DNA of 38,422 nucleotides from a virus, in the IMG/VR virus record IMGVR_UViG_3300037010_000653, positions 1 to 38,422 of that record, one strand, 5' to 3'. Within the stretch, counting starts at the first letter, position 1, and each line of letters opens with the position of its first letter. Of this stretch, positions 1-38,422 are shown in pieces. The position numbers were made by a program, and so were the translations under genes. Below the pieces are notes generated by a model. That model was given only the letters and a program-made list of their open reading frames with translations. It made no database searches and was not told the DNA's origin.

Positions 1-390
1 AGCGGTATCGCCGTGGACAGCCCGCCGCTAGCCGTTGATGAGACAGCAGCGGCGCCAGTCAGCGGTATCGCGGTGGACAGCCCTGCGGCCGCCGTGGATG
101 AGACGACGACAGCACCAGTCAGCGGTATCGCCGTGGACAGCCCGCCGCTAGCCGTTGATGAGACAGCAGCGGCGCCAGTCAGCGGTATCGCGGTGGACAG
201 CCCTGCGGCCGCCGTGGATGAGACGACGACAGCACCAGTCAGCGGTATCGCGGTGGACAGCCCTGCGGCCGCCGTGGATGAGACGACGACAGCACCAGTC
301 AGCGGGATCTGGGTGGTGAGGTCACCGCCTGCCGTGGACGATACAGCAGCGGCGCCAATCAGCGGAATCTGGGTGGTGAGGGCAGCGCTG
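1..390. repeat. 60-bp tandem repeat array inside the fibre gene (left end)
   Basis: Two 60-bp unit types that differ at scattered bases follow each other in the order A (1-60), B (61-120), A (121-180), B (181-240), B (241-300). Two more diverged units start at 301 and 361. Each unit begins AGCGGTATCG or a close variant. The unit length is a multiple of three, so copy number can change without breaking the reading frame; each unit encodes 20 residues. Confidence 0.95.
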
Positions 391-26464: not shown

Positions 26465-26572
26465 TCCAGTGCAGACGCGGCGCGTTGCCGCGCCACTTGA
26501 AGAATGACTCAGGTAGTTTTGAGTCGAGTTACGGCATTGCGCCGTTGTTTAACCTGCGAAAAGGAGCGAAGT
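26465..26572. promoter_or_regulatory. Intergenic segment with three successive stem-loops
   Basis: The 108-base gap holds GGCGCG/CGCGCC (26479-26494), GACTCA/TGAGTC (26506-26525) and ACGGC/GCCGT followed by TGTTTAA (26531-26552). The third is a weak terminator-like element. AAGGAGCG then precedes the next gene. The cluster may cut or pause transcription between the helicase unit and the primase unit. Confidence 0.6.
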
Positions 26573-27598
26573 ATGAGTAATCTGACCACTAAAACCACGA
26601 GCTTGCCGACTGTTGTGGGGCTGTCTAGTCTTGCGGCTGACGCAATCAGCGGTGTATCGACCGAAGCCCGCATGTTCCCTGAGATCAGCATCAAAGGCGC
26701 ACGCTGGCGCTTGCGTATGCTCGATGGCGAGGAGCATGTGTTGAACTCGTTCAACATCCAGTTTGCGCTGATTGCGGCAAACCCGGCCAAGAGCAAGACG
26801 TTTTATCTCAACAAGTATGACCCGGACGGTGAACCCCGCGCCCCGGACTGCGCTTCGGACAACGGTATTCGCCCCAACGACGGCGTTGAGCACCCGCAAT
26901 CGCCGTCTTGCGCGAACTGCCCGCACAATGTGTGGGGCAGCGACATCAACCCGGTGTCGGGCAAGAAAAACAAACGGTGTAAAGACTCCAAGCGCATCGC
27001 CGTCATGCTGGTGGGCGACCCCGGCGCGCAGATTTTTGCGTGGCGGCTCTCGCCCATGAACATGCTGTCGTTCTCCGACGCCGTGAAGGACGCTGTGCGC
27101 CAGAACATCGACCTGGAGCGAGTGGCGTTCGATGCAGCGTTCGATGCCAAGAGCGATTACCCGCGCGTGGTGTTTACGATCAAGCGCCCGTTGACCGAGG
27201 AAGAACTGCACGCTGCATCGCAGTTGCGCCAGAGCGAAGGCGCAAAGGCCGCAGTCGGTATGGGTGCGCCGATGTTCGTTGCGCCTGTTCGGGTGGTCGT
27301 GGCGGAAGCCGTGACGGAAGCCGTGACAGATGGTGCTCGCAATGACTATCTGAGCCGGGCATGCTACGCCAAAATTAAGAATGGTGTGGAAGGCGATGCG
27401 CTAGTGACTGAAATGCTTGCACTTAACGAGTCCAAGTGCGTGCCGCCGCTACCCGAGTCCGAGGTGTTGGCAATTGTTCATAGCAAAGAGCAACGGGATA
27501 ATGCTCCTGCGCCGGAAAAGGTAACACCACTTCCCAGGCCCGAGGCCAAGGCGGTGAAAGCTGAAACGCTTGATCTGGACGCTTTGCTCGGCGATTGA
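26573..27598 (+). CDS. Zinc-knuckle protein with C-terminal PriCT segment (possible ssDNA-binding)
   Basis: The 341-residue product has a central cluster SPSCANCPHNVWGSD..KKNKRCKDSKRIAVM (C-xx-C..C), of a type present in phage proteins of unknown function. A long beta/alpha region with FAWRLSPMNMLSFSDAV follows. From about residue 256 it has NDYLSRACYAKIKNGVEGDA.. LNESKCVPPLPESEVLAIVHSKE, which matches the PriCT (primase C-terminal) pattern and is almost the same as residues 193-246 of the next gene. The acidic C-terminus (LDLDALLGD) resembles ssDNA-binding protein tails. Single-strand binding or primase assistance is inferred. Confidence 0.7.
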   Translation: MSNLTTKTTSLPTVVGLSSLAADAISGVSTEARMFPEISIKGARWRLRMLDGEEHVLNSFNIQFALIAANPAKSKTFYLNKYDPDGEPRAPDCASDNGIRPNDGVEHPQSPSCANCPHNVWGSDINPVSGKKNKRCKDSKRIAVMLVGDPGAQIFAWRLSPMNMLSFSDAVKDAVRQNIDLERVAFDAAFDAKSDYPRVVFTIKRPLTEEELHAASQLRQSEGAKAAVGMGAPMFVAPVRVVVAEAVTEAVTDGARNDYLSRACYAKIKNGVEGDALVTEMLALNESKCVPPLPESEVLAIVHSKEQRDNAPAPEKVTPLPRPEAKAVKAETLDLDALLGD

Positions 27599-27649: not shown

Positions 27650-30115
27650 ATGATCCAAGACTATCTACGGTTAGGGTTGGCACTTGTCGCTATACCACGG
27701 GATGAAAAAAGCCCAAAGGGGCGATGGCTGGATCGAAGATGCGAGGATATTGCGCGGCTTGGACGCGGCAATGTAGGCATCAACCACGCACTTTCTGGCA
27801 CCTGCTGCCTTGACGTTGACGACTCCACGCTATTTAAGGCGTGGTGGGTCGCGCAGGGGTTCTCGCTTGACGCGCTCAAGCAGATTATTGCTGCGTGCCC
27901 CGTTTGGATGAGCGGCAGGCCGCGCCGCTGGAAGGCGCTATTTCGCGCACCGGAGGGTATGCGCACACTCGCCCTGCACCATCACGGGTTTGAGCTGCGA
28001 GCAGCCGGTGGGCAAGACGTGTTGCCCCCGTCGGTCTTTGTTGACGAGGATGGCACTCCGTGGCAATACCACTGGATCAACGGCTTGCCGTCGTCGCTGG
28101 ACGACGTGCCGATGCTGCCAGCGAAGTTACTTGCTAAGGCACGGGCAACCCCACGCCAGGAAAGCCCGCTGGACGCACCTACGGGAATGTTGGCGGCGGT
28201 CTTGGGCGTCATTACGGAAGGTGGCCGCAATGACTACCTGAGCCGCGCCTGTTACGCCAAGATCAAGGCTGGCGTGGAGGGCGACGACCTGGTGGCCGAA
28301 ATGCTGGCACTGAACGAGTCTAAGTGCATGCCGCCGCTACCCGAGTCCGAGGTGCTGGCGATCATTCGTAGCAAAGAACGGCTCGGCATCGAGCCAGCGC
28401 CGGAGGTTGAGCAATGGAAGGCGCTGGCACCGTTCATACCCGATGGATACCGCCTTCATGCAGGCACCTTGCAGGTCAAGGTGAAAGACGAAGAAAGCGA
28501 CGATACGACATGGGACACATTGTTGCACTACCCGATTGCCGTAACGAACGTGATCCGCATTCCTGGCGTGCAGGAGCAACGATACATTGAAGTGACGGTG
28601 CTCAACCCGCACGAAGCAAAACACCACTTGACTATGGTGCAACTGAGTCGGGAATTTGAGCAGGCGCTGAACAACATCGGCGTGAGCGTGTTCGGCAAGC
28701 GCGCAACTTGGGTGAAGGCGTTTCTGATTGCGTCGAAAGAGAAGTTGGAGCGGGAGCAAAAAGTGATGAACTCATACAAACAATTCGGCTGGCAAGCGGA
28801 CGGCAGTTTCCTTGTCGGCAACCGGCTTTACCGCGCAGGCCAAGTGCCCGTGCTAGTGCATCTGGAACCGCACGCTGCGCAATTGGCGCGGTATATGCCC
28901 CTGGTTGGAGACGTGAACGCATGGCGCGAGGCGGCGTTGCCCCTGCTGTGCGGCGATAGCCCCAAGCAGACCTTCGCGTTCATGTGCTCGCTGGCCGCGC
29001 CATTGATGAAGCTGTCGGGCGAACGCGGCGGCATCCTGTCGCTGGTCGGCCCTTCAGGACAAGGCAAATCCACTGTGCAGAGCGCAATTACGAGCGTGTT
29101 CGGAACGCAAGAGTCCGCATTCAGCAAGGCGCAGGACACCGAGAACGCGCGAGTAGCGTTTCTATCCATCATGCACAATCTACCCGTGCAGGCCGAAGAA
29201 TTGACAAAGCTCGACGGCCAAAAGCTCGCTACGCTCGCCTATGACGTATCCGAAGGTCGGGACAAACGGCGGCTTGACCGCTCGGGCCACATGCGCGAAA
29301 TGATCCCGGAGTGGCATACCATCCTAACATCAAGCAGCAATACGTCCATCATTGAGAAGCTGATGGACTTGGGCGCAATCCCGGAGGCTTTCCGCGTGCT
29401 AGAAATGCGCGTGACACTGCCACCCAACGCCCGCTTGCAGGATGGTGACATGATGAAGCGCCTGCTGATGGCGAATGCCGGGTCTGCCGGGCACGTCCTG
29501 GCGCAATATTTGGTCGATCACAAAGACTTGATCGCGCAGGGGCTGGAAAAGGTCAAGCACGCATTGCAGGCGGTGACCCAGGCCCCGACCGAAGAACGTA
29601 TTCGCATCAACATGGTCGCTGGTGCGGCCATGATGGCCCGCGTTGTCAAGGCGGCGCTAGGAATGCCCGTCGATGCGAACGCTGTGCTGGAATTTGGCCG
29701 CGACCTGATTCTGGCTGAACGGGAGCACCGCAGCGCCTACGAGTCGGATGCGACACAAACGCTTACAGACTTCATCAACGAGAACATCTCGCATTGCGTG
29801 CAGACTAACATGCAGAACGTAGTGTTCGACCTGATCCGCACCACGCCCCCCTACACCATGCGCTACGAAGCGCCTAGCCGCACGCTTTACATCTCTTACT
29901 CGCTCATGCGCCGCTATGCGTTGCAACGACGGCTGGATTGGGCGGACGCGCAACGCGAACTGCGCAAAATCGGAGTGCTGCGCGGCTTGCGCAAAGTGAC
30001 GCTGACCAAGGGAATGACGGGCGTCCCCCCGCAAGGGCAAACGCAATGCCTCGAAATCGACGCCGACCGGCTTGGTTTCGAGTTCAAGCAGGAGGGCGAG
30101 GATCAAGTAGCGTGA
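27650..30115 (+). CDS. Primase-polymerase/helicase fusion (prim-pol + PriCT + DUF927 ATPase)
   Basis: The 821-residue product begins like a prim-pol domain (YLRLGLALVAIPRDEKSPKGRWL) with the acid set CLDVDDS (D55, D57, D58). PriCT follows at 193-246. The ATPase region has SLVGPSGQGKSTV (Walker A 467-475) and later LTSSSNTSIIEKLMDLGAIPEAFRVLEMRV, a DUF927 pattern. It probably primes synthesis and unwinds the fork for the family A polymerase. The ATG has no ribosome site and sits just after a terminator, so expression is probably low. It ends overlapping the leftward gene by 13 bases. Confidence 0.85.
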   Translation: MIQDYLRLGLALVAIPRDEKSPKGRWLDRRCEDIARLGRGNVGINHALSGTCCLDVDDSTLFKAWWVAQGFSLDALKQIIAACPVWMSGRPRRWKALFRAPEGMRTLALHHHGFELRAAGGQDVLPPSVFVDEDGTPWQYHWINGLPSSLDDVPMLPAKLLAKARATPRQESPLDAPTGMLAAVLGVITEGGRNDYLSRACYAKIKAGVEGDDLVAEMLALNESKCMPPLPESEVLAIIRSKERLGIEPAPEVEQWKALAPFIPDGYRLHAGTLQVKVKDEESDDTTWDTLLHYPIAVTNVIRIPGVQEQRYIEVTVLNPHEAKHHLTMVQLSREFEQALNNIGVSVFGKRATWVKAFLIASKEKLEREQKVMNSYKQFGWQADGSFLVGNRLYRAGQVPVLVHLEPHAAQLARYMPLVGDVNAWREAALPLLCGDSPKQTFAFMCSLAAPLMKLSGERGGILSLVGPSGQGKSTVQSAITSVFGTQESAFSKAQDTENARVAFLSIMHNLPVQAEELTKLDGQKLATLAYDVSEGRDKRRLDRSGHMREMIPEWHTILTSSSNTSIIEKLMDLGAIPEAFRVLEMRVTLPPNARLQDGDMMKRLLMANAGSAGHVLAQYLVDHKDLIAQGLEKVKHALQAVTQAPTEERIRINMVAGAAMMARVVKAALGMPVDANAVLEFGRDLILAEREHRSAYESDATQTLTDFINENISHCVQTNMQNVVFDLIRTTPPYTMRYEAPSRTLYISYSLMRRYALQRRLDWADAQRELRKIGVLRGLRKVTLTKGMTGVPPQGQTQCLEIDADRLGFEFKQEGEDQVA

Positions 30116-30819
30116 TTCTCAATCACCGCTTGCGTGCGCACGGCCTTGAGCCTGCGCACTTCGTCCAGGATCACCGCAATGGCTGCGTCCGACTGCGCAC
30201 GGAACCGGCTCTCGTCGGCCTTGATCGCCATATTGATCGCACTGGCGGCTGCGTCTTTTTGGATAGATAGCAGCCGCGCGTAATCGTTGTCCCAAGGCGC
30301 AGGGTTGAGGTCAAGAATGTCCTCAATCTTGCGCAGGGCCTTGTTGACAATCCGGTTGAGGTGATTGGTCGGCTCGTTGCTTACAGTTTCAAGCTCGTCG
30401 CATACCCCATCTTCTGCAACTTGGGCAACTGGGTATTGAGGCGCTTGCCAATGTCCGTCCGATATATTGGGGAGTTCGGCACCGATAGCGAGTCCAAGGC
30501 TTTGTAGGCTTGCTCCCGACTTGCGGCCACTGTCGGCGCTGCCGCCGCCGCGACCAGCAGATACGTCCCGGCACTTACGAGGTGCATTTCCTCCACAATC
30601 TTGTTCCCGCGCTCCACTGGCACCTTCGCCGCCTTCAATTCGCAAGGGTGGATGTGGTTGCTCACCGCGTCCAGATTGTAGATCGGTGTCCCCGACACTT
30701 CCTTGCGACTCAGTTTGTTGTAAGGAAAGTCCGGGATCGCCAGCACGACCCCCGTTGCTGTCAGGCCAGTCAAGAAGTTCGTCCAGATCGATGATCCGTT
30801 TAGGCTTTCGAGCATCCAT
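30103..30819 (-). CDS. Gene overlapping the PurD-like gene out of frame; possible small terminase
   Basis: The frame has no stop from 30819 to 30103 (238 residues). The only canonical start codon between 30819 and the late internal ATG (MAIKAD) is the ATG at 30819 (MDARKPKRIIDLDELL), preceded by GGAG at nine bases. About 437 bases lie over the ATP-grasp gene in another frame. The last 92 residues (NHLNRIVNKALRKIEDILDL..YARLLSIQKDAAASAINMAIKADESRFR..) look real and helical, like small terminase or similar phage proteins. The part over the ligase is Gly/Ser-rich and may be disordered, or not translated if an unusual start is used. Confidence 0.45.
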   Translation of the reverse strand: MDARKPKRIIDLDELLDWPDSNGGRAGDPGLSLQQTESQGSVGDTDLQSGRGEQPHPPLRIEGGEGASGAREQDCGGNAPRKCRDVSAGRGGGSADSGRKSGASLQSLGLAIGAELPNISDGHWQAPQYPVAQVAEDGVCDELETVSNEPTNHLNRIVNKALRKIEDILDLNPAPWDNDYARLLSIQKDAAASAINMAIKADESRFRAQSDAAIAVILDEVRRLKAVRTQAVIENHAT

Positions 30820-31691
30820 TTCGCTGTGCTCCGGTGTAGTTGCTGCTGAATGTTGAAGATAGGCCAACCTGGGCGCATCGTAAACTCTAGCGGCCACGGG
30901 TTGCCTTTGTCGTCAATGATAACCGCAACGTCCACGAACCCAATGTGCCCACTGCGCACCAGATAGTCCTCCAGCGGCTTGAGCACTTTGTCGGCCAGTT
31001 TGGACTTCTCGGTGTAAGTGACGACAGTCCCCATTTCCCCTGTGTTCGGGCCTTTGTCGTCATTCATCAACTTCTTGTGCTCGAAGTTCTCGCACCAGGG
31101 GCTTGCAAAACCGTTTGGGCCGACCCATGCACCCACGGCCATCTCGATGCCGGGTTGGAACTCCTGCATGATGAACGCGGGGACGTGCTTCCCGGTGCGC
31201 TTCCACTTTTCCAGCATGTAGATCATATCCGCAGGCCCTTTGCTGACGTAGGACAGGCTACGGTCTGCATCCCCGAACGGCTTGGAAACGTAGCGTCCCA
31301 TGTTGGCCTTGACGTAGGCAATGGCCTTGTCGTAGCTGGTGAACGTCTCGCCCTCAATGAGCGGTATTCCGTGCGCTTTGAGCACATCCATGCCTACCTG
31401 CCGGTTCAGCTCCCACTGCGCAGTGAAGCTGTTGGCCCCGTAGATTGGATACCCGCGCTGCTGCCACTTGTCCAGGTCGGTCATGTAGACCGCATTGTCC
31501 GGCAGGAACACCAAGTCCGCCCAGTTCATGTGCTGTTCCCAGTGCTGCACCTTCTGGACAAGATGATCCCCGACAGTAATCAACCCATCGGGCTTGTTGC
31601 GAATGAACCACCGGACTTGCGCGCCCTCGGCTATGCTGCGTAGGCAAAAGTCGAGCGCCAGCGCCGACGGGTCGATAACGAGGATTTTCAT
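30381..31691 (-). CDS. PurD-like ATP-grasp ligase
   Basis: The 436-residue product is close to the 429 residues of bacterial PurD (GAR synthetase) and follows its plan. MKILVID opens a Rossmann-like N-domain. HKKLMNDDKGPNTGEMGT (205-222) matches PurD's DHKR...GPNTGGMG. WPLEFTMRPGWP (267-277) stands where PurD has EFNxRfGDPE, so the metal-binding Asn is replaced by Thr. The end carries IYRTDIGKRL, like PurD's RxDIGxRA. The usual KADGLAAGKGV loop reads SKPFGDADRSLSYVSKG. The fold is certain; the substrate may have changed. It lies among virion genes, and its ATG overlaps the preceding stop. Confidence 0.8.
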   Translation of the reverse strand: MKILVIDPSALALDFCLRSIAEGAQVRWFIRNKPDGLITVGDHLVQKVQHWEQHMNWADLVFLPDNAVYMTDLDKWQQRGYPIYGANSFTAQWELNRQVGMDVLKAHGIPLIEGETFTSYDKAIAYVKANMGRYVSKPFGDADRSLSYVSKGPADMIYMLEKWKRTGKHVPAFIMQEFQPGIEMAVGAWVGPNGFASPWCENFEHKKLMNDDKGPNTGEMGTVVTYTEKSKLADKVLKPLEDYLVRSGHIGFVDVAVIIDDKGNPWPLEFTMRPGWPIFNIQQQLHRSTAKWMLESLNGSSIWTNFLTGLTATGVVLAIPDFPYNKLSRKEVSGTPIYNLDAVSNHIHPCELKAAKVPVERGNKIVEEMHLVSAGTYLLVAAAAAPTVAASREQAYKALDSLSVPNSPIYRTDIGKRLNTQLPKLQKMGYATSLKL

Positions 31692-33343
31692 TGAGAGGAC
31701 GGTTTAGTAGAAATAGCAGACGCCGACGTTGCGCCCAACGCACCCAATGTTGCAAGGAATTTAATATCTTCCGGGGTAAGTCTATACCCGCTGATGAGCA
31801 TTTGTTGGCCCTCAGGCGTAGCCAATTGGTTCAACACGCTGTGCGAGAGTAGGCCCGCCGTTCCAAATAGCGCCTGTTGCGGAAGACTCAATTTGCCCGT
31901 ATAAGGCAGTCGGACTTCACCATTGCCCATTGCCGCGATTCCTTCCATACTGGCCGCGCGTTCCGCCCACCCCGGCACTTTAGTACCTGTACCGAACGCC
32001 TGCGTTACCGCTGCGGACTGGCTGAGTGGGGCAAGCCCATACGACGACGCTCCTGCAAGCACAGACGGCTTCCCACGCGCCATCGTCGTATAGAGCTTGG
32101 CCGGATCGACCGGCTTCGTTCCCGCTGCAACACCAGGGTCGGTCATCATCTTTTGCAAATCCAAAGCCTGCGTCATGCGAGTGCGATAAACCCGTAGCGC
32201 CCGAGAAACGCGGGCCGTGTCACCTTGCGCACTGGTTTGCCACGCCTTTTCCAAGTTCTCCAGCGCATCCCGAGTTGCGCCGTCGCTCGTTGTCGCAGCC
32301 TTATTGCGCAACCACTGCGACACTTTGTAATAGTCTTGCCCGCTGATCGCCTGCCCTTCTTGCGCACGGTGGATAGCCGCTGCGACCCCTTTGCTTTGCG
32401 GATTAGCGACCAGTTCCGCAAGCATGGGCTTGTTTTGCGTAATGGCGCTGTCTATTGCGCTCGCAACGTTTGGGTCGATTGTGAGCTTGGTGTTGCCAAT
32501 CCGCGACAAGAAGTCCCCACTAATCTTTTGTATTGCACGGTTAACGTTGCGCGCGTTGACTTGTGTCTCACCTCTAAGCCCAAGCGTGTCGAACACTTGG
32601 CGACCAAACGTCTCGATGTTCTTCTCAGGAACCTTTTTGGCGAACGGCCCAAAAGAGCCAGCCACCTCGCGCGCGAATTGAGGCGAGCCAGTTATTTCGC
32701 TTGGCGGGACGATGAATTCGGCGTTTTGAGCGGCGCGCACGGCGTTCGCATCCGTCGCGTTCTTGATTCCTGGCGCAAAAACCCTGCCAATTCCATACTT
32801 CGCCGCTTGTAGAGCACTAGGTATCGCAGCCCCGGCAGCGCCGAATAACGCGCCAGTACCGCGCTCTCCAGGCCGCGACGTTGCCGCACCGAGGGCGGCG
32901 CCAGTGCCAGTAGTAACTAGAGGCGCGAGCAGGGGGGAAGCCACCATAAGCGGCTCGGTCAGTGCAGCAGCCCCCATTGCGAGTGGTGCGCCACCGATAA
33001 CACCGCCTACAAACTGTGTGGCCTGCGGAACATCACGTTGCCAATCACGCGCGGTCGCCTGCGCTCGTTCCCCAATCTTTCCAGGAATCAGGCTGGCCGC
33101 GTTGAGGGCTGGCAACGCCTCCGCCTTCATCAAATCGCCAAAAGCCTGCCATATTGCGCCGGGCGCCTTTCGCACAGCGCTATACCAATCCATCCCGGCC
33201 CCGGCGCTTGGAGCGGCGGCTTTTGGCGGCGCGGCGTTTGGGGCTGCGGCCTTGTTGTTCGCAAGATAGGCGTCCGGGTCAAACCCGCCCGCGCCTGCTG
33301 GCTGCTTGGCAGACGACAAATAGGCGTCAGGATCAAAGTCCAT
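31688..33343 (-). CDS. Putative internal virion / DNA-ejection protein
   Basis: The 551-residue product repeats FDPDAYL at the N-terminus (residues 3-9 and 21-27). It has an Ala/Pro linker, a hydrophobic glycine-rich zone (about 105-175, FVGGVIGGAPLAMGAAALTEPL) able to insert into a membrane, and a helical C-terminal part. FDPDAYL-type N-termini and glycine-rich segments are typical of podovirus proteins stored in the head and sent out before the DNA. Its start overlaps the previous gene by 11 bases. Confidence 0.65.
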   Translation of the reverse strand: MDFDPDAYLSSAKQPAGAGGFDPDAYLANNKAAAPNAAPPKAAAPSAGAGMDWYSAVRKAPGAIWQAFGDLMKAEALPALNAASLIPGKIGERAQATARDWQRDVPQATQFVGGVIGGAPLAMGAAALTEPLMVASPLLAPLVTTGTGAALGAATSRPGERGTGALFGAAGAAIPSALQAAKYGIGRVFAPGIKNATDANAVRAAQNAEFIVPPSEITGSPQFAREVAGSFGPFAKKVPEKNIETFGRQVFDTLGLRGETQVNARNVNRAIQKISGDFLSRIGNTKLTIDPNVASAIDSAITQNKPMLAELVANPQSKGVAAAIHRAQEGQAISGQDYYKVSQWLRNKAATTSDGATRDALENLEKAWQTSAQGDTARVSRALRVYRTRMTQALDLQKMMTDPGVAAGTKPVDPAKLYTTMARGKPSVLAGASSYGLAPLSQSAAVTQAFGTGTKVPGWAERAASMEGIAAMGNGEVRLPYTGKLSLPQQALFGTAGLLSHSVLNQLATPEGQQMLISGYRLTPEDIKFLATLGALGATSASAISTKPSSQ

Positions 33344-35192
33344 ACTTTTCCTTCAAGTGCCGAGAGATAGCAGTCGCGCGAGGGTCGTTTGGGTGCTTCT
33401 TAGCCCAATCCGCCGCTTGCTGATCTTCTGGACTCATCGTCTGTGGGCGGCTGCTACCTCGTATTTGCTCGCTAAGTGACTCTCTCTGTTGACGCAAGCT
33501 ATCCAAAACGTTTTTGCTTTCCATTTCGAGTGTTCTTTGCGCCGCTTCTAACTGGCCGAGCGTCATATCGCGCGGCAATATATTTTCCGCCTCTTTCATG
33601 GCCGACACGGTGATTCCCCGCCCGCCCGAATTAGGGTTAAGAACTCTCGCAAACTCTCTCTGCACGCTTTTCAAAAACAGGTCGAAGGACGCATATTTTG
33701 GATCAACCGTGCTTCGCAAACGATTCCACACCGAGTTAATCGGCGTGTTTGGCCCAAGCCCATAATCCTTAGCCGCCTGCATCAATCCAGCGAAGTTTTT
33801 ATGCAGTGCGTTATATGCAGATTCAGTATTCGATAGAGCGCTCTGCGCCTGCTTTAAAGCATCGCTGGTGGCTTTAACATCCGCCATGTTTATGATCCTA
33901 TCGCGGCTTAGCATAGCTTTGTAAGGCTCAGTTCCTGCGGCGATGTCAACTGCTCGGGCTACGTCATACGGTAAACGACCTTTGACTGTGTTAATCGCTT
34001 GCTGCGTCTTTATTGGGGAGACGGCAGCGGCATTTGCCGCTGCCTGTTGAGCCTTGCCTTGCACTGCTTCGCGTGCTATGTCTGGAAAAGACTGCTCGAT
34101 CCAGACCCTCATACCCATCGGAACCGGCTGCCCGTTACGCATCAATTCAGCGCCTGCCGCTAATTGATCCGGTGTGTATGGCGACTGAACATAGCCAAGC
34201 CCAGGATACCGCGCGCCAAGGCCTTGCTCGCGCAACAGCAAACCCATAGCCTTGAAAAACTCCGTGTCGGTCAACCCTGCCTCGCGGATTGCGGCATTGG
34301 CTTGCTGTGTTAGCGTCGGGTTAATCGTGTTCATTGCGAGGGCAAGCTCGCGGTCGCTCATGTTTGGGTGCGCCTTGAGCAGATTCGCAGTAGCCTGAGC
34401 AGCAAGATTGAGAGGCTGATTGTGCTGAATGAGAGCCAGCATACGCCCATAGGCTCCAGTTGGGAGCGGCGGATCAGCGTCTTGGCCCTGTTGCGCGGAC
34501 GGCACGGCTGGCGATGCCCCTGGCGCGGGCGCAGGCGCGGGCGCGGGTGTTCGCCAATTACCGTTCCGTGCCATGTCGAGCAAGATGATTGCCGCATCTT
34601 TCGGACGCATTTTCTTGGCGTCAACCGCAGTGGCGACCTGTTCCGGGGTTGTAATGTGGTCAAACCGTCGCCCCGGCCCGAACGTAGGGACTGGCGCTGC
34701 ACCCGGAATCGGCGCGGCTGGTGACGCCTCTGACGCAGACGTGAGCGGTCGCAGATTATCGTTCCGTGCCATGTCGAGCAAGATGTTCTCCACATCGCTC
34801 GCGGCGGGGGTCGGCCCCGCATCCGGGAGCGGCACGGCTTGTATCTTCTGCGGCGGGGCTGCGAACGTCTGCGCCGTGCCTACTGGCGGAAACGGCTGCC
34901 GCGCGCTATCTTGCCCTGGTGCTGGCGCGGGCGCGAGTGCAGGCGCGGGCGCTGGCGCGGAGTCTTGATCGGACGGCAGGCTGTTTACGAGGCTGCGAAA
35001 ATACGCTCCTAAGCCTCCGAGGGCGGCCTGCTGATCTTGGAAATTCTGCCATTCAACCTGACGCGCCAGCGCACTGTTTGCCAGCAAATTGTCGAGTTGC
35101 TGCTGTTTTTGCCGATTGGCAATATCTTGCTGGCTGGCGTCGTAGGCGCCAGCCAGCATGTTGCCAAACCGCAAGTAGCTACCGATGTTCAT
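33333..35192 (-). CDS. Putative internal virion protein with Pro-Ala linkers and LLDMARN repeats
   Basis: The 619-residue product has an N-terminal helical region (SYLRFGNMLAGAYDASQQDI) and Pro-Ala tracts (APAPAPALAPAPAPG and later). Two copies of a ILLDMARN(D/G)N(L/W)R block are separated by about 65 residues, and a long helical C-terminal half has ALKQAQSALSNTESAYNALH. The tracts probably act as flexible linkers between helical bundles. It lies in the ejection-protein cluster. The function is inferred from context. Confidence 0.65.
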   Translation of the reverse strand: MNIGSYLRFGNMLAGAYDASQQDIANRQKQQQLDNLLANSALARQVEWQNFQDQQAALGGLGAYFRSLVNSLPSDQDSAPAPAPALAPAPAPGQDSARQPFPPVGTAQTFAAPPQKIQAVPLPDAGPTPAASDVENILLDMARNDNLRPLTSASEASPAAPIPGAAPVPTFGPGRRFDHITTPEQVATAVDAKKMRPKDAAIILLDMARNGNWRTPAPAPAPAPGASPAVPSAQQGQDADPPLPTGAYGRMLALIQHNQPLNLAAQATANLLKAHPNMSDRELALAMNTINPTLTQQANAAIREAGLTDTEFFKAMGLLLREQGLGARYPGLGYVQSPYTPDQLAAGAELMRNGQPVPMGMRVWIEQSFPDIAREAVQGKAQQAAANAAAVSPIKTQQAINTVKGRLPYDVARAVDIAAGTEPYKAMLSRDRIINMADVKATSDALKQAQSALSNTESAYNALHKNFAGLMQAAKDYGLGPNTPINSVWNRLRSTVDPKYASFDLFLKSVQREFARVLNPNSGGRGITVSAMKEAENILPRDMTLGQLEAAQRTLEMESKNVLDSLRQQRESLSEQIRGSSRPQTMSPEDQQAADWAKKHPNDPRATAISRHLKEKYGL

Positions 35193-35201
35193 TTTTAGCC
35201 C

Positions 35202-36176
35202 TTAAGTCCAAACCGACCCGTAGTTGGAGAAATCATATGCGCCGGTGTTTCCGCCTCCGCCGCCTATATTCAACCCACTAAATATATTGCCAACGACATT
35301 GCCAATCGGTTTGGCGATCGCCGCGCCAAAGCCTTGCGCCGCCTGATTGAGTTGGCCTTGTTGCGCAATCTGCGCACTTGGGTTTCCAAGCCCTTGGTAG
35401 GCGTTGTAATCAGCAATCTGTTGCTGAGTCGGCAGGTTGGCTTGTTGACCCATCTGCCCAAGGCCGTTCATCATTCCGAGCTGCGAATTTACCGCGTTGA
35501 CTTGCGTCTGGTACGGCATCGCCGTGGCTTGGTTCATCAAGTCCACTCCTTGCGTGCCGATATTCGCTCCCACTGTGCCCAGTCGCGCCGCAGCCTGATC
35601 AAGCGAACCAACCCCGCGCACTCCTGCCAATTGCCGGTTCAGCAGGTTGTTCTGCCAGTTTTGATTGAACAACTGGTTTTGCTGTGCCGCAATCTGCGCG
35701 CCAGCCCCGCTCATGTTCAACCCACGCGCGGCGAGGTCTGCGTTGACTTGGTTTGCGTTCTGCGCTTGTAGGTAGTTGTAAAGCTGAGTCTGCGGGTCGA
35801 ACGCGGATTGAACAAGCTGGTTCTGTAGCCACGGAATCTGGCCCATTTGGCCGTAAAGCTGGTTCGCCGCATTGGCCGCCTGAAAACCTTGCTGTGTTCC
35901 ATACTGTGCCGCTTGCTGCGCGCCGGAAAGCGCTTGGTTATAGTAGGGGCTGTTGAGCACCCCGTTTACGGCGTTTTGCGCGGACGGCAACACCTGCTGA
36001 TATAGGTTGTTTGTCCCGATTTGCGGGATGAGGCCAAGCTCACTATTTGCTGCTTGGGTCAGGTTAGGCGGAAGGTATGAGCCACCTTGGTAGCCGCCCG
36101 ACGAACTATCGCCGCCGAATAGGGCGTTCCCAATAAGAGGCCCTGCGACCGCGCCGATAATACTAGCAAAGGGCAT
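35202..36176 (-). CDS. Gln/Asn/Gly-rich virion protein, ejection-protein candidate
   Basis: The 324-residue product has a glycine-rich hydrophobic N-terminus (ASIIGAVAGPLIGNALFGG) and a long region with many Gln, Asn and Ala residues in helical pattern (GFQAANAANQLYGQMGQIPW..NANQVNADLAARG). The end holds AAIAKPIGNVVGNIFSG and a disordered Gly tail. Such composition is typical of the smallest of the three podovirus ejection proteins, which forms a channel in the outer membrane. Assignment is by composition and order only. Confidence 0.6.
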   Translation of the reverse strand: MPFASIIGAVAGPLIGNALFGGDSSSGGYQGGSYLPPNLTQAANSELGLIPQIGTNNLYQQVLPSAQNAVNGVLNSPYYNQALSGAQQAAQYGTQQGFQAANAANQLYGQMGQIPWLQNQLVQSAFDPQTQLYNYLQAQNANQVNADLAARGLNMSGAGAQIAAQQNQLFNQNWQNNLLNRQLAGVRGVGSLDQAAARLGTVGANIGTQGVDLMNQATAMPYQTQVNAVNSQLGMMNGLGQMGQQANLPTQQQIADYNAYQGLGNPSAQIAQQGQLNQAAQGFGAAIAKPIGNVVGNIFSGLNIGGGGGNTGAYDFSNYGSVWT

Positions 36177-36194: not shown

Positions 36195-36518
36195 TCATTT
36201 CTGGATGACGACTTCATCAACCTTGGCAGGGTCGGTTTCGTCCGTGGCGTGAATGCAAAACCAAACAGAATCTTCGAGCGCTATGACGCCATGAGCAACC
36301 CCTGCGCGGACGTTCACGACAGCCGGGGCGCGATACAGTTGCCGCCCTTCGGGGGTCACCAGTACGACCGCGCCCTGCGCCAGAATGCTCAAGTGATCGT
36401 ACTTGTGCTTGTGCGTCAATGCGGACGATCCTTTCGGGAGGTGCATTTGCCTTGCATAGACCCCCGACGAAAAATGATGGATCGTGCCCTGGTCGAGTTG
36501 TTTCTTTAGCGAGATCAT
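36195..36518 (-). CDS. Cupin-fold protein
   Basis: The 107-residue product has HKHKYDHLSILAQGAVVLV (H36, H38, H42, a cupin motif 1 set) and GVAHGVIALEDSVWFCIHATD (H76, H90). Three histidines could bind a metal. Small cupins occur in virion modules of podoviruses; a structural role, such as a tail spike base, or a sugar-modifying role are both possible. The start lies four bases inside the end of the holin gene. Confidence 0.8.
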   Translation of the reverse strand: MISLKKQLDQGTIHHFSSGVYARQMHLPKGSSALTHKHKYDHLSILAQGAVVLVTPEGRQLYRAPAVVNVRAGVAHGVIALEDSVWFCIHATDETDPAKVDEVVIQK

Positions 36519-37510: not shown

Positions 37511-38422
37511 TCAATTCCAAATGAAAACGAGCGCCGCTGGAAACGGCTTGCCATGATCGACCCCACTGCCAAGTCCGGCGATTCCAGAGTCTTGCGGTAG
37601 GCCGCCTTGCGTGCCTTTTGCATACGCCGCGCCGTCCAGCAATGATAACAATGTTTGACCCCCACGCTGAACAGTGACGTTTGGCGAGATAGATATTGTC
37701 AGCGCGTCGCCAGCAGCAACAGGTAACTGTTGCCGTGACGTTTGCCGCCCCGCCGCACCATAAGGCGAACCGCCCGCAGCCGTTGCACTTACGAGAAAGT
37801 AATTTGAATACGATGGGACGGTGAACGCGCCGGATTGCGTAAAAACTGCTATGTTCGCCTGTGGTGGAGGCGACGTAACGTAGAACAACGGTGTCGCAGC
37901 CTGTTGCGCAGCGTACAAGTACGCCGCATTCAGCGTGTTTGCGGCGGTCAGCGCGCCGGACGCCACTGCGGCTGCAATCGCCGAGCCGGAGAGCGTAATA
38001 TGCGTGGTGAGGCTTGCGGACGTACCAGCACCGGCAGATGCCGATCCTGCGAGCAGGATGGCGCTACTCAGCCCGGCCTGTGCGGCGGCTTGGGCGAGCG
38101 CCGATCCGGCGAGATAGATGTTTACAGCAAATGATCCGTTGGCGATTGACGCAGATGCGGCCAAACCGGAAAGCGGTATCGCCGTGGACAGCCCGCCGCT
38201 AGCCGTTGATGAGACAGCAGCGGCGCCAGTCAGCGGTATCGCGGTGGACAGCCCTGCGGCCGCCGTGGATGAGACGACGACAGCACCAGTCAGCGGTATC
38301 GCCGTGGACAGCCCGCCGCTAGCCGTTGATGAGACAGCAGCGGCGCCAGTCAGCGGTATCGCGGTGGACAGCCCTGCGGCCGCCGTGGATGAGACGACGA
38401 CAGCACCAGTCAGCGGTATCGC
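37511..38422 (-). CDS. Repeat-bearing tail fibre protein, C-terminal part (continues from base 1)
   Basis: This is the 3' part of the gene begun at 506. The frame is open to the window end and continues without shift when the ends are joined. After the 20-residue repeats (38172-38422) come diverged ones (IYLAGSALAQAAAQAGLSS, ITLSGSAIAAAVASGALTA). A link AAYLYAAQQAATPLF then leads to a beta-rich C-terminal domain FTQSGAFTVPSYSNYFLVSATAAGG with a glycine-rich part, ending PAALVFIWN. The last domain resembles the distal module of the fibre at 3775-4812. It probably forms a receptor-binding tip. Confidence 0.8.
   Translation of the reverse strand, partial: AIPLTGAVVVSSTAAAGLSTAIPLTGAAAVSSTASGGLSTAIPLTGAVVVSSTAAAGLSTAIPLTGAAAVSSTASGGLSTAIPLSGLAASASIANGSFAVNIYLAGSALAQAAAQAGLSSAILLAGSASAGAGTSASLTTHITLSGSAIAAAVASGALTAANTLNAAYLYAAQQAATPLFYVTSPPPQANIAVFTQSGAFTVPSYSNYFLVSATAAGGSPYGAAGRQTSRQQLPVAAGDALTISISPNVTVQRGGQTLLSLLDGAAYAKGTQGGLPQDSGIAGLGSGVDHGKPFPAALVFIWN
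38172..38422. repeat. Terminal 251-bp copy of the left end (60-bp repeats)
   Basis: Units A, B, A, B (38172-38411) plus 11 bases equal bases 1-251 exactly. It is either the overlap of a circularly assembled contig or a true terminal redundancy. Because it lies wholly within a tandem repeat, the real number of units cannot be decided here. Confidence 0.95.

What the first reader, a model, noticed from the sequence alone, without database searches (positions are those of the whole stretch)
30381..31691. PurD-like ligase with altered catalytic loops among virion genes
The GPNTG.MG motif and the final R.DIG motif identify a GAR-synthetase-type ATP-grasp enzyme. However, the lysine/glycine loop (KADGLAAGKGV in PurD) and the metal Asn after Glu269 are changed. 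No other purine gene is present, and the gene lies among structural genes instead of early metabolism. It may attach an amino acid to something other than phosphoribosylamine, for example a modified base, a virion protein or a small molecule used in defence. The cupin gene nearby could be a partner.
Basis: inference. Interest (0 to 1): 0.75.

Follow-up and report, generated by a model that had tools for sequence, protein, structure and literature searches.

The report
Phage PurD-like ligase beside ejection genes
Many uncultured phages carry, right after the genes for the proteins they inject with their DNA, an enzyme built like the purine-making enzyme PurD but with both of its substrate pockets rebuilt, so it probably joins some other pair of molecules that nobody has yet identified.

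Summary
30381-31691(-) encodes a full-length PurD-fold ATP-grasp protein (AlphaFold pLDDT 94; best solved match PurD 2yw2, E 3e-30). Across 57 diverse members against 47 genuine PurDs, the ATP/Mg/acyl-phosphate residues are kept. The PurD-invariant glycine-site residues and the GGREH, PGN and GGR(V) loops are replaced, several by new residues invariant in the phage family (E204, E219, T271, W276). Its NCBI purD score is 79 bits against a cut-off of 288. dN/dS is about 0.045. It is an active-looking ligase, very probably not GAR synthetase. The gene is always in the P22-type late operon just after the DNA-ejection genes (45/45 loci; 4-nt ATGA overlap in 32/56). The cupin is not a dedicated partner: that slot holds GNAT in 16/37 loci and cupin in 8/37, never both. 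Substrate and target remain unknown. Best reading: a late-expressed carboxylate-amine ligase, perhaps acting on the ejection apparatus or carried with it. One clue for ejection proteins as substrate (C-terminal Gln) failed its control. Paraburkholderia prophages with the gene make it testable.

The parts
30381..31691 (-). PurD-fold ATP-grasp ligase, 436 aa (the finding)
31248..31283 (-). A-loop, residues 137-148 KPFGDADRSLSY, in place of PurD KADGLAAGKGV; the ATP lysine K137 is kept
   Evidence: sequence
31029..31052 (-). GPNTGEMG motif, residues 214-221; PurD GPNTGGMG with the second Gly changed to Glu219, invariant in the family
30861..30887 (-). Residues 269-277 EFTMRPGWP, against PurD EFNxRxGDP: E269 and R273 kept, N->T271, D->W276, glycine-site E292 lost at the next residue (I278)
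   Evidence: PurD roles from PMC8880213
30447..30461 (-). RTDIG motif, residues 411-415, at the C-domain end; followed by a conserved 21-aa C-terminal extension (L422 and G429 near-invariant) that PurD lacks
31688..33343 (-). Large virion protein in the P22 gp16 (third ejection protein) position; its stop overlaps the ligase start by 4 nt (ATGA)
   Evidence: position-homologues match DNA-ejection PHROG 26400 or carry SLT domains
33333..35192 (-). Large virion protein in the P22 gp20 (second ejection protein) position
   Evidence: synteny with L101 and other loci
35202..36176 (-). Gly/Ser-rich protein in the P22 gp7 (first ejection protein) position
   Evidence: L101 and L100 equivalents match PHROG 598 DNA ejection at 9.5e-37 and 2.3e-10
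36195..36518 (-). Cupin-like small protein in the variable enzyme slot just upstream of the ejection genes; also matches tail-fibre adhesin / short tail fibre PHROGs
30103..30380 (-). Small ORF directly downstream of the ligase, protein conserved in close relatives, no clear start codon

Best explanation
It is a catalytically competent ATP-grasp carboxylate-amine ligase that descends from PurD or a PurD-like ancestor and has been re-specialised. Most likely it uses ATP to make an acyl phosphate on a small carboxylic acid, probably an amino acid held by Arg273, and transfers it to an amine that is not phosphoribosylamine. It is made late, translationally coupled to the last DNA-ejection protein. 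The most economical target is therefore something belonging to the virion or its ejection apparatus, or a compound made while virions are assembled. Shown computationally: fold, ATP-site conservation, replacement of both PurD substrate sites, strong purifying selection, fixed position after the ejection genes. Inferred: enzymatic activity, acyl-phosphate chemistry, loss of GAR synthesis. Unknown: donor, acceptor, and whether the enzyme itself is packaged.
For: AlphaFold model pLDDT 93.9, pTM 0.92. The top 15 solved fold matches are all PurD chains, ahead of PurK and biotin carboxylase. In 57 phage against 47 PurD sequences the ATP/Mg residues of Aquifex PurD (E100, K143, E192, K214, E283) and the glycine-carboxylate Arg287 are retained at 100%; K103 becomes R97 at 100%. 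PurD-invariant D212, G227, N285, D290 become E204, E219, T271, W276 (98-100%), and E292 is not conserved. D212, R287 and E292 are the glycine ligands in PMC8880213. GGREH, PGN, GPExPL and the GGR arginine (R378->Y377) are lost. TIGR00877 purD scores 79 bits against cut-off 288. The phage clade is single (SH-aLRT 99) on a 3.6 changes/site stem, apart from the host PurDs. dN/dS is 0.044-0.062 with four close relatives. A protein of at least 480 aa ends within 1.5 kb upstream in 45/45 loci, with a 4-nt overlap to the upstream ORF in 32/56. The ejection identity of such proteins rests.
Against: No activity has been measured. PurD-like substrates cannot be excluded from sequence alone, and no solved structure shows PRA bound, so acceptor-site loss is inferred from loss of PurD-invariant N- and C-domain loops. 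The link to the ejection apparatus is positional only. P22-type phages with the same ejection cluster mostly lack the gene: 1 of 49 records sharing the Hc3 protein has it, so ejection itself does not need it. A possible substrate signature, C-terminal Gln on the last ejection protein (18/47 against 6% of other ORFs), is not clearly different from ligase-free phages (3/14, p = 0.34).
Confidence: 0.62

Rival explanations
1. It is an ordinary auxiliary PurD that boosts purine synthesis during infection.
For: Full-length PurD homology, same fold, ATP residues kept, GPNTG and R.DIG motifs kept.
Against: All 47 PurDs keep D212, E292, N285, G227, R378 and the GGREH arginine and glutamate; no phage member shows this set. 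The score is far below the purD equivalog cut-off. Host genomes with clear purD hits already carry it. No other purine gene was found in an essentially complete genome. The position is late operon, not early metabolism.
Confidence: 0.07
2. It ligates an amino acid onto a phage protein of the ejection or tail module (an ATP-grasp protein modification, as RimK or TTL do on other scaffolds).
For: Constant position right after the ejection genes with start/stop overlap. The same late modules carry other protein- or small-molecule-modifying enzymes: GNAT, Asp/Asn beta-hydroxylase, SET, sulfotransferase.
Against: PurD-type enzymes are known to act on small molecules. The other enzymes vary freely and occur in phages without the ligase. 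The C-terminal Gln signature failed its control. The ejection proteins are extremely diverse (18-22% identity) while the ligase is well conserved (about 50%), which argues against a sequence-specific site on them.
Confidence: 0.25
3. It is a virion enzyme packaged and injected with the DNA, acting first on a host or defence metabolite after entry.
For: Late expression next to ejected proteins is the usual setting of injected enzymes (general knowledge; position). Small diffusible substrates fit the PurD scaffold and the strong conservation.
Against: No packaging evidence, and no N-terminal extension or signal shared with the ejection proteins.
Confidence: 0.2
4. It modifies cell wall, surface or another metabolite late in infection (for example against superinfection or for lysis), as proposed for the multi-gene peptide-bond modules of phages PA11, PhiRIO-1 and PhiM6.
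For: Precedent for phage ATP-grasp genes with a proposed peptidoglycan role (PMC6256558). Late expression. Some upstream proteins carry SLT transglycosylase domains.
Against: No amidoligase or glutamine-amidotransferase companion was found in the window ORFs scanned; here the ligase stands alone. The gene is not in the lysis cassette.
Confidence: 0.2

Closest known systems
PurD, GAR synthetase (TIGR00877; solved 2yw2, 2xcl, 1gso, 2qk4)
   Same: Whole fold (N, A, B, C domains), ATP-grasp core, K143/E192/K214/E283/R287 equivalents, GPNTG.MG and R.DIG motifs
   Different: Glycine site D212/E292 replaced, Mg Asn to Thr, GGREH, PGN and GGR loops lost, A-loop changed, extra C-terminal helix, new invariant E219 and W276; 79 bits against cut-off 288
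Other ATP-grasp carboxylate-amine ligases and carboxylases (PurK, PurT, biotin carboxylase, PylC)
   Same: ATP-grasp fold and acyl-phosphate type chemistry; weaker fold matches
   Different: 10-16% identity; the tree separates PurK and PurT from the PurD-plus-phage group with full support
Phage ATP-grasp/amidoligase peptide-bond modules (PA11, PhiRIO-1, PhiM6)
   Same: Phage-borne ATP-grasp ligases of unknown substrate (PMC6256558, PMC6209634)
   Different: Those are multi-gene modules; this is a single PurD-derived gene fixed after the ejection genes. The best viral fold matches are distant, 10-16% identity

Membership tests
PurD (GAR synthetase) | NCBIfam TIGR00877 equivalog score of at least 288 bits | tested here: not met
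   79.4 bits; relatives 80.5 and 110 bits
PurD (GAR synthetase) | GGREH loop of the N-domain, invariant in PurD | tested here: not met
   R and E at 100% in 47 PurDs, absent from the phage family
PurD (GAR synthetase) | Glycine-binding Asp212, Arg287, Glu292 (Aquifex numbering, PMC8880213) | tested here: not met
   Only Arg is kept (R273); Asp to Glu204, Glu292 lost
PurD (GAR synthetase) | PurD fold over full length including C-domain | tested here: met
   AlphaFold model and Foldseek to PDB, top 15 hits all PurD
PurD (GAR synthetase) | Makes GAR from PRA, glycine and ATP | not testable with these tools
   needs biochemistry or complementation
ATP-grasp superfamily | ATP/Mg residues of the grasp fold (Lys A-loop, Glu, Lys, Mg Glu) | tested here: met
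   K137, E183, K206, E269 invariant in 57 members; E94 and R97 too; GARS_A over cut-off
Phage multi-gene amidoligase/ATP-grasp peptide-bond module | Companion amidoligase, amidotransferase and COOH-NH2 ligase genes | tested here: not met
   None among window ORFs scanned with Pfam; a few short ORFs were not scanned

The most novel reading that the evidence does not exclude
A previously undescribed family of PurD-derived ligases that covalently modifies, or is itself injected with, the DNA-ejection machinery of P22-type phages: the first enzyme dedicated to that step.
Probability: 0.25. Interest if true: 0.8.

Novelty: new variant of a known kind. Interest (0 to 1): 0.55.

Why it matters
Hundreds of uncultured phages keep this enzyme under strong selection, yet PHROGs holds no matching family, automatic tools would call it purD (a false 'purine auxiliary gene'), and it is almost absent from cultured phages. 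If its product is found, it reveals a new step in virion maturation, DNA ejection or host takeover. It also gives a clean case of a primary-metabolism enzyme rebuilt by phages with its ATP chemistry intact. Isolate-borne prophages in Paraburkholderia make this testable.

Tried and rejected
(1) C-terminal Gln of the last ejection protein as a substrate tag: enriched (18/47 against 23/368 other ORFs) but ligase-free phages show 3/14 (p = 0.34), so not claimed. (2) Cupin as partner: the slot is variable, GNAT 16/37, cupin 8/37, never together. (3) Fusions that would reveal a target: none seen; the longer ORF in one MAG genome (L120) is not this family but a bacterial carbamoyl-phosphate-synthetase-like protein. 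(4) Weaker 'phage' hits at 22-27% identity: the two examined (L024, L025) are genuine bacterial-type PurDs with GGREH, and others carry bacterial purD annotation. (5) Control ejection proteins from viral contigs: two of three queries found no relative and the third only six, mostly short matches, so 14 proteins from annotated phages were used. (6) tRNA and Rfam scans: nothing. (7) Literature: no paper found that describes this family.

Full report
What is there. The window is a 38,422-base virus record. Its ends share an exact 251-bp repeat and related contigs run continuously across them, so it is essentially a complete genome. The late genes lie on the minus strand and wrap round the ends: TerL, portal, coat, SU10-type adaptor and fibre genes (14374 to 1), then endolysin, holin, cupin, three ejection-position proteins, the PurD-like gene and a small ORF (37665 to 30103). 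Replication genes lie on the plus strand between.

Identity. The 436-aa protein at 30381-31691 matches GARS_A (over cut-off) and GARS_C (below cut-off), and solved PurDs at 7e-19 singly and 2e-33 as a family profile. A confident AlphaFold model (pLDDT 93.9, pTM 0.92) has PurD chains as its 15 best fold matches, with PurK and biotin carboxylase well behind. The best viral fold matches are distant, at about 10-16% identity.

Family. PHROGs has no match. The Paraburkholderia copies share a contig with an integrase gene about 48 kb away and appear in IMG/VR as isolate-derived viral contigs of 57 kb, so they look like prophages.

Residues. I aligned 57 phage members (under 80% mutual identity) with 47 genuine PurDs and Aquifex PurD numbering. 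Functional roles come from PMC8880213. Kept at 100%: E94 (E100), K137 (K143), E183 (E192), K206 (K214), E269 (E283), R273 (R287). Changed and fixed: K103 to R97, E185 to Q176, D212 to E204, G227 to E219, N285 to T271, D290 to W276. Glycine ligand E292 is not conserved. The GGREH, PGN, GPExPL and GGR loops, invariant or nearly so in PurD, are gone, and DGLAAGKGV is replaced by a conserved GDADKALSY-type loop. A C-terminal extension with near-invariant L422 and G429 is new. Thus the ATP and acyl-phosphate machinery is intact, the carboxylate-binding arginine is intact, and the rest of the donor site and the PurD acceptor surfaces are replaced by another fixed set. The assignment of the N- and C-domain loops to the acceptor is inference, since no PurD structure shows PRA.

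Ancestry and selection. NCBI's purD equivalog model gives 79 bits against a cut-off of 288. In a tree with PurK and PurT the phage proteins form one group (SH-aLRT 99) on a very long stem of 3.6 changes per site, apart from host PurDs. PurD sampling was mainly two bacterial groups and long branches meet, so whether the family arose inside or beside PurD is open. Most host genomes with the phage gene show a clear PurD of their own. dN/dS is 0.044-0.062 with four close relatives.

Context. In 45 of 45 loci with enough upstream sequence a protein of at least 480 aa ends within 1.5 kb before the gene. In 32 of 56 the upstream ORF overlaps its start by exactly 4 nt (ATGA), as in the window. In the Paraburkholderia prophage the upstream genes match DNA-ejection PHROGs 598 (9.5e-37) and 26400 and the head-closure family Hc3. 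Other upstream proteins carry SLT domains or resemble annotated ejection/injection proteins of cultured phages. So the gene follows the P22-type ejection genes. Of 49 phage records sharing the Hc3 protein, only MW202796 has the ligase; in Pan3, PBR31 and others the third ejection gene is followed directly by a tailspike. It is accessory, not part of the basic ejection machine.

Companions. Upstream of the ejection genes lies a variable enzyme slot: GNAT in 16 of 37 loci, cupin in 8, never both, Asp/Asn beta-hydroxylase in 7, sulfotransferase in 2, and a SET domain in one locus. GNAT or 2OG-oxygenase genes also occur in late modules of ligase-free phages. The cupin is therefore not a dedicated partner.

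A clue tested. The last ejection protein ends in Gln in 18 of 47 loci against 6% of other ORFs. Ejection proteins from ligase-free phages do so in 3 of 14 (p = 0.34). The clue is not used.

Mechanism, with grades. Shown computationally: fold, retained ATP site, replaced donor and acceptor sites, purifying selection, late-operon coupling to ejection genes. Inferred: ATP-dependent acyl phosphate on a carboxylate held by R273, transfer to an amine other than phosphoribosylamine. Open: donor, acceptor, packaging. Candidate targets, in order: a virion or ejection-apparatus protein, a small molecule used by an injected enzyme, a cell-wall or surface compound. Full purine function is unlikely.

Known or new. 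Phage ATP-grasp genes in peptide-bond modules have been proposed to modify peptidoglycan (PMC6256558), but those modules are multi-gene. No paper found describes the present family. It works like an ATP-grasp ligase, is homologous to PurD, and fails PurD membership on score and on defining residues. I rate it a new variant of a known kind.

Noticed in passing
30103-30380 (-): A small ORF directly downstream of the ligase is protein-conserved in close relatives (L002, L003, L007, L009) and partly in L011, but has no clear ATG/GTG/TTG start near the ligase stop. It may use a near-cognate start or begin inside the ligase gene.
   Followed up: partly
26504-27598 and 27650-30115 (+): Two adjacent replication-module proteins share a near-identical stretch (GxRNDYLSRACYAKIKxGVEGDxLVxEMLALNESKCxPPLPESEVLAIxxSKE; PriCT_1 in the second), apparently an internal duplication.
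   Followed up: no
L101 4254-5311, L100 4096-5029, L097 3847-4335, L089 5055-5405, window 36195-36518: A swappable enzyme slot upstream of the ejection genes: GNAT, cupin, Asp/Asn beta-hydroxylase, SET-domain protein, sulfotransferase. GNAT and cupin exclude each other in 37 loci.
   Followed up: partly
47 loci, last ejection protein upstream of the ligase: Unusually frequent C-terminal glutamine (18/47) despite very low sequence similarity; perhaps a general trait of ejection proteins (3/14 in ligase-free phages).
   Followed up: partly
Phage records such as OQ572412, MT838306: Several unannotated 'phage' records contain genuine bacterial-type purD with the GGREH motif, probably host DNA in the records; a trap for purD surveys.
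   Followed up: partly
window 1-251 and 38172-38422: Exact 251-bp terminal direct repeat that includes short imperfect tandem repeats (AGCGGTATCGC.GTGGACAG units).
   Followed up: no
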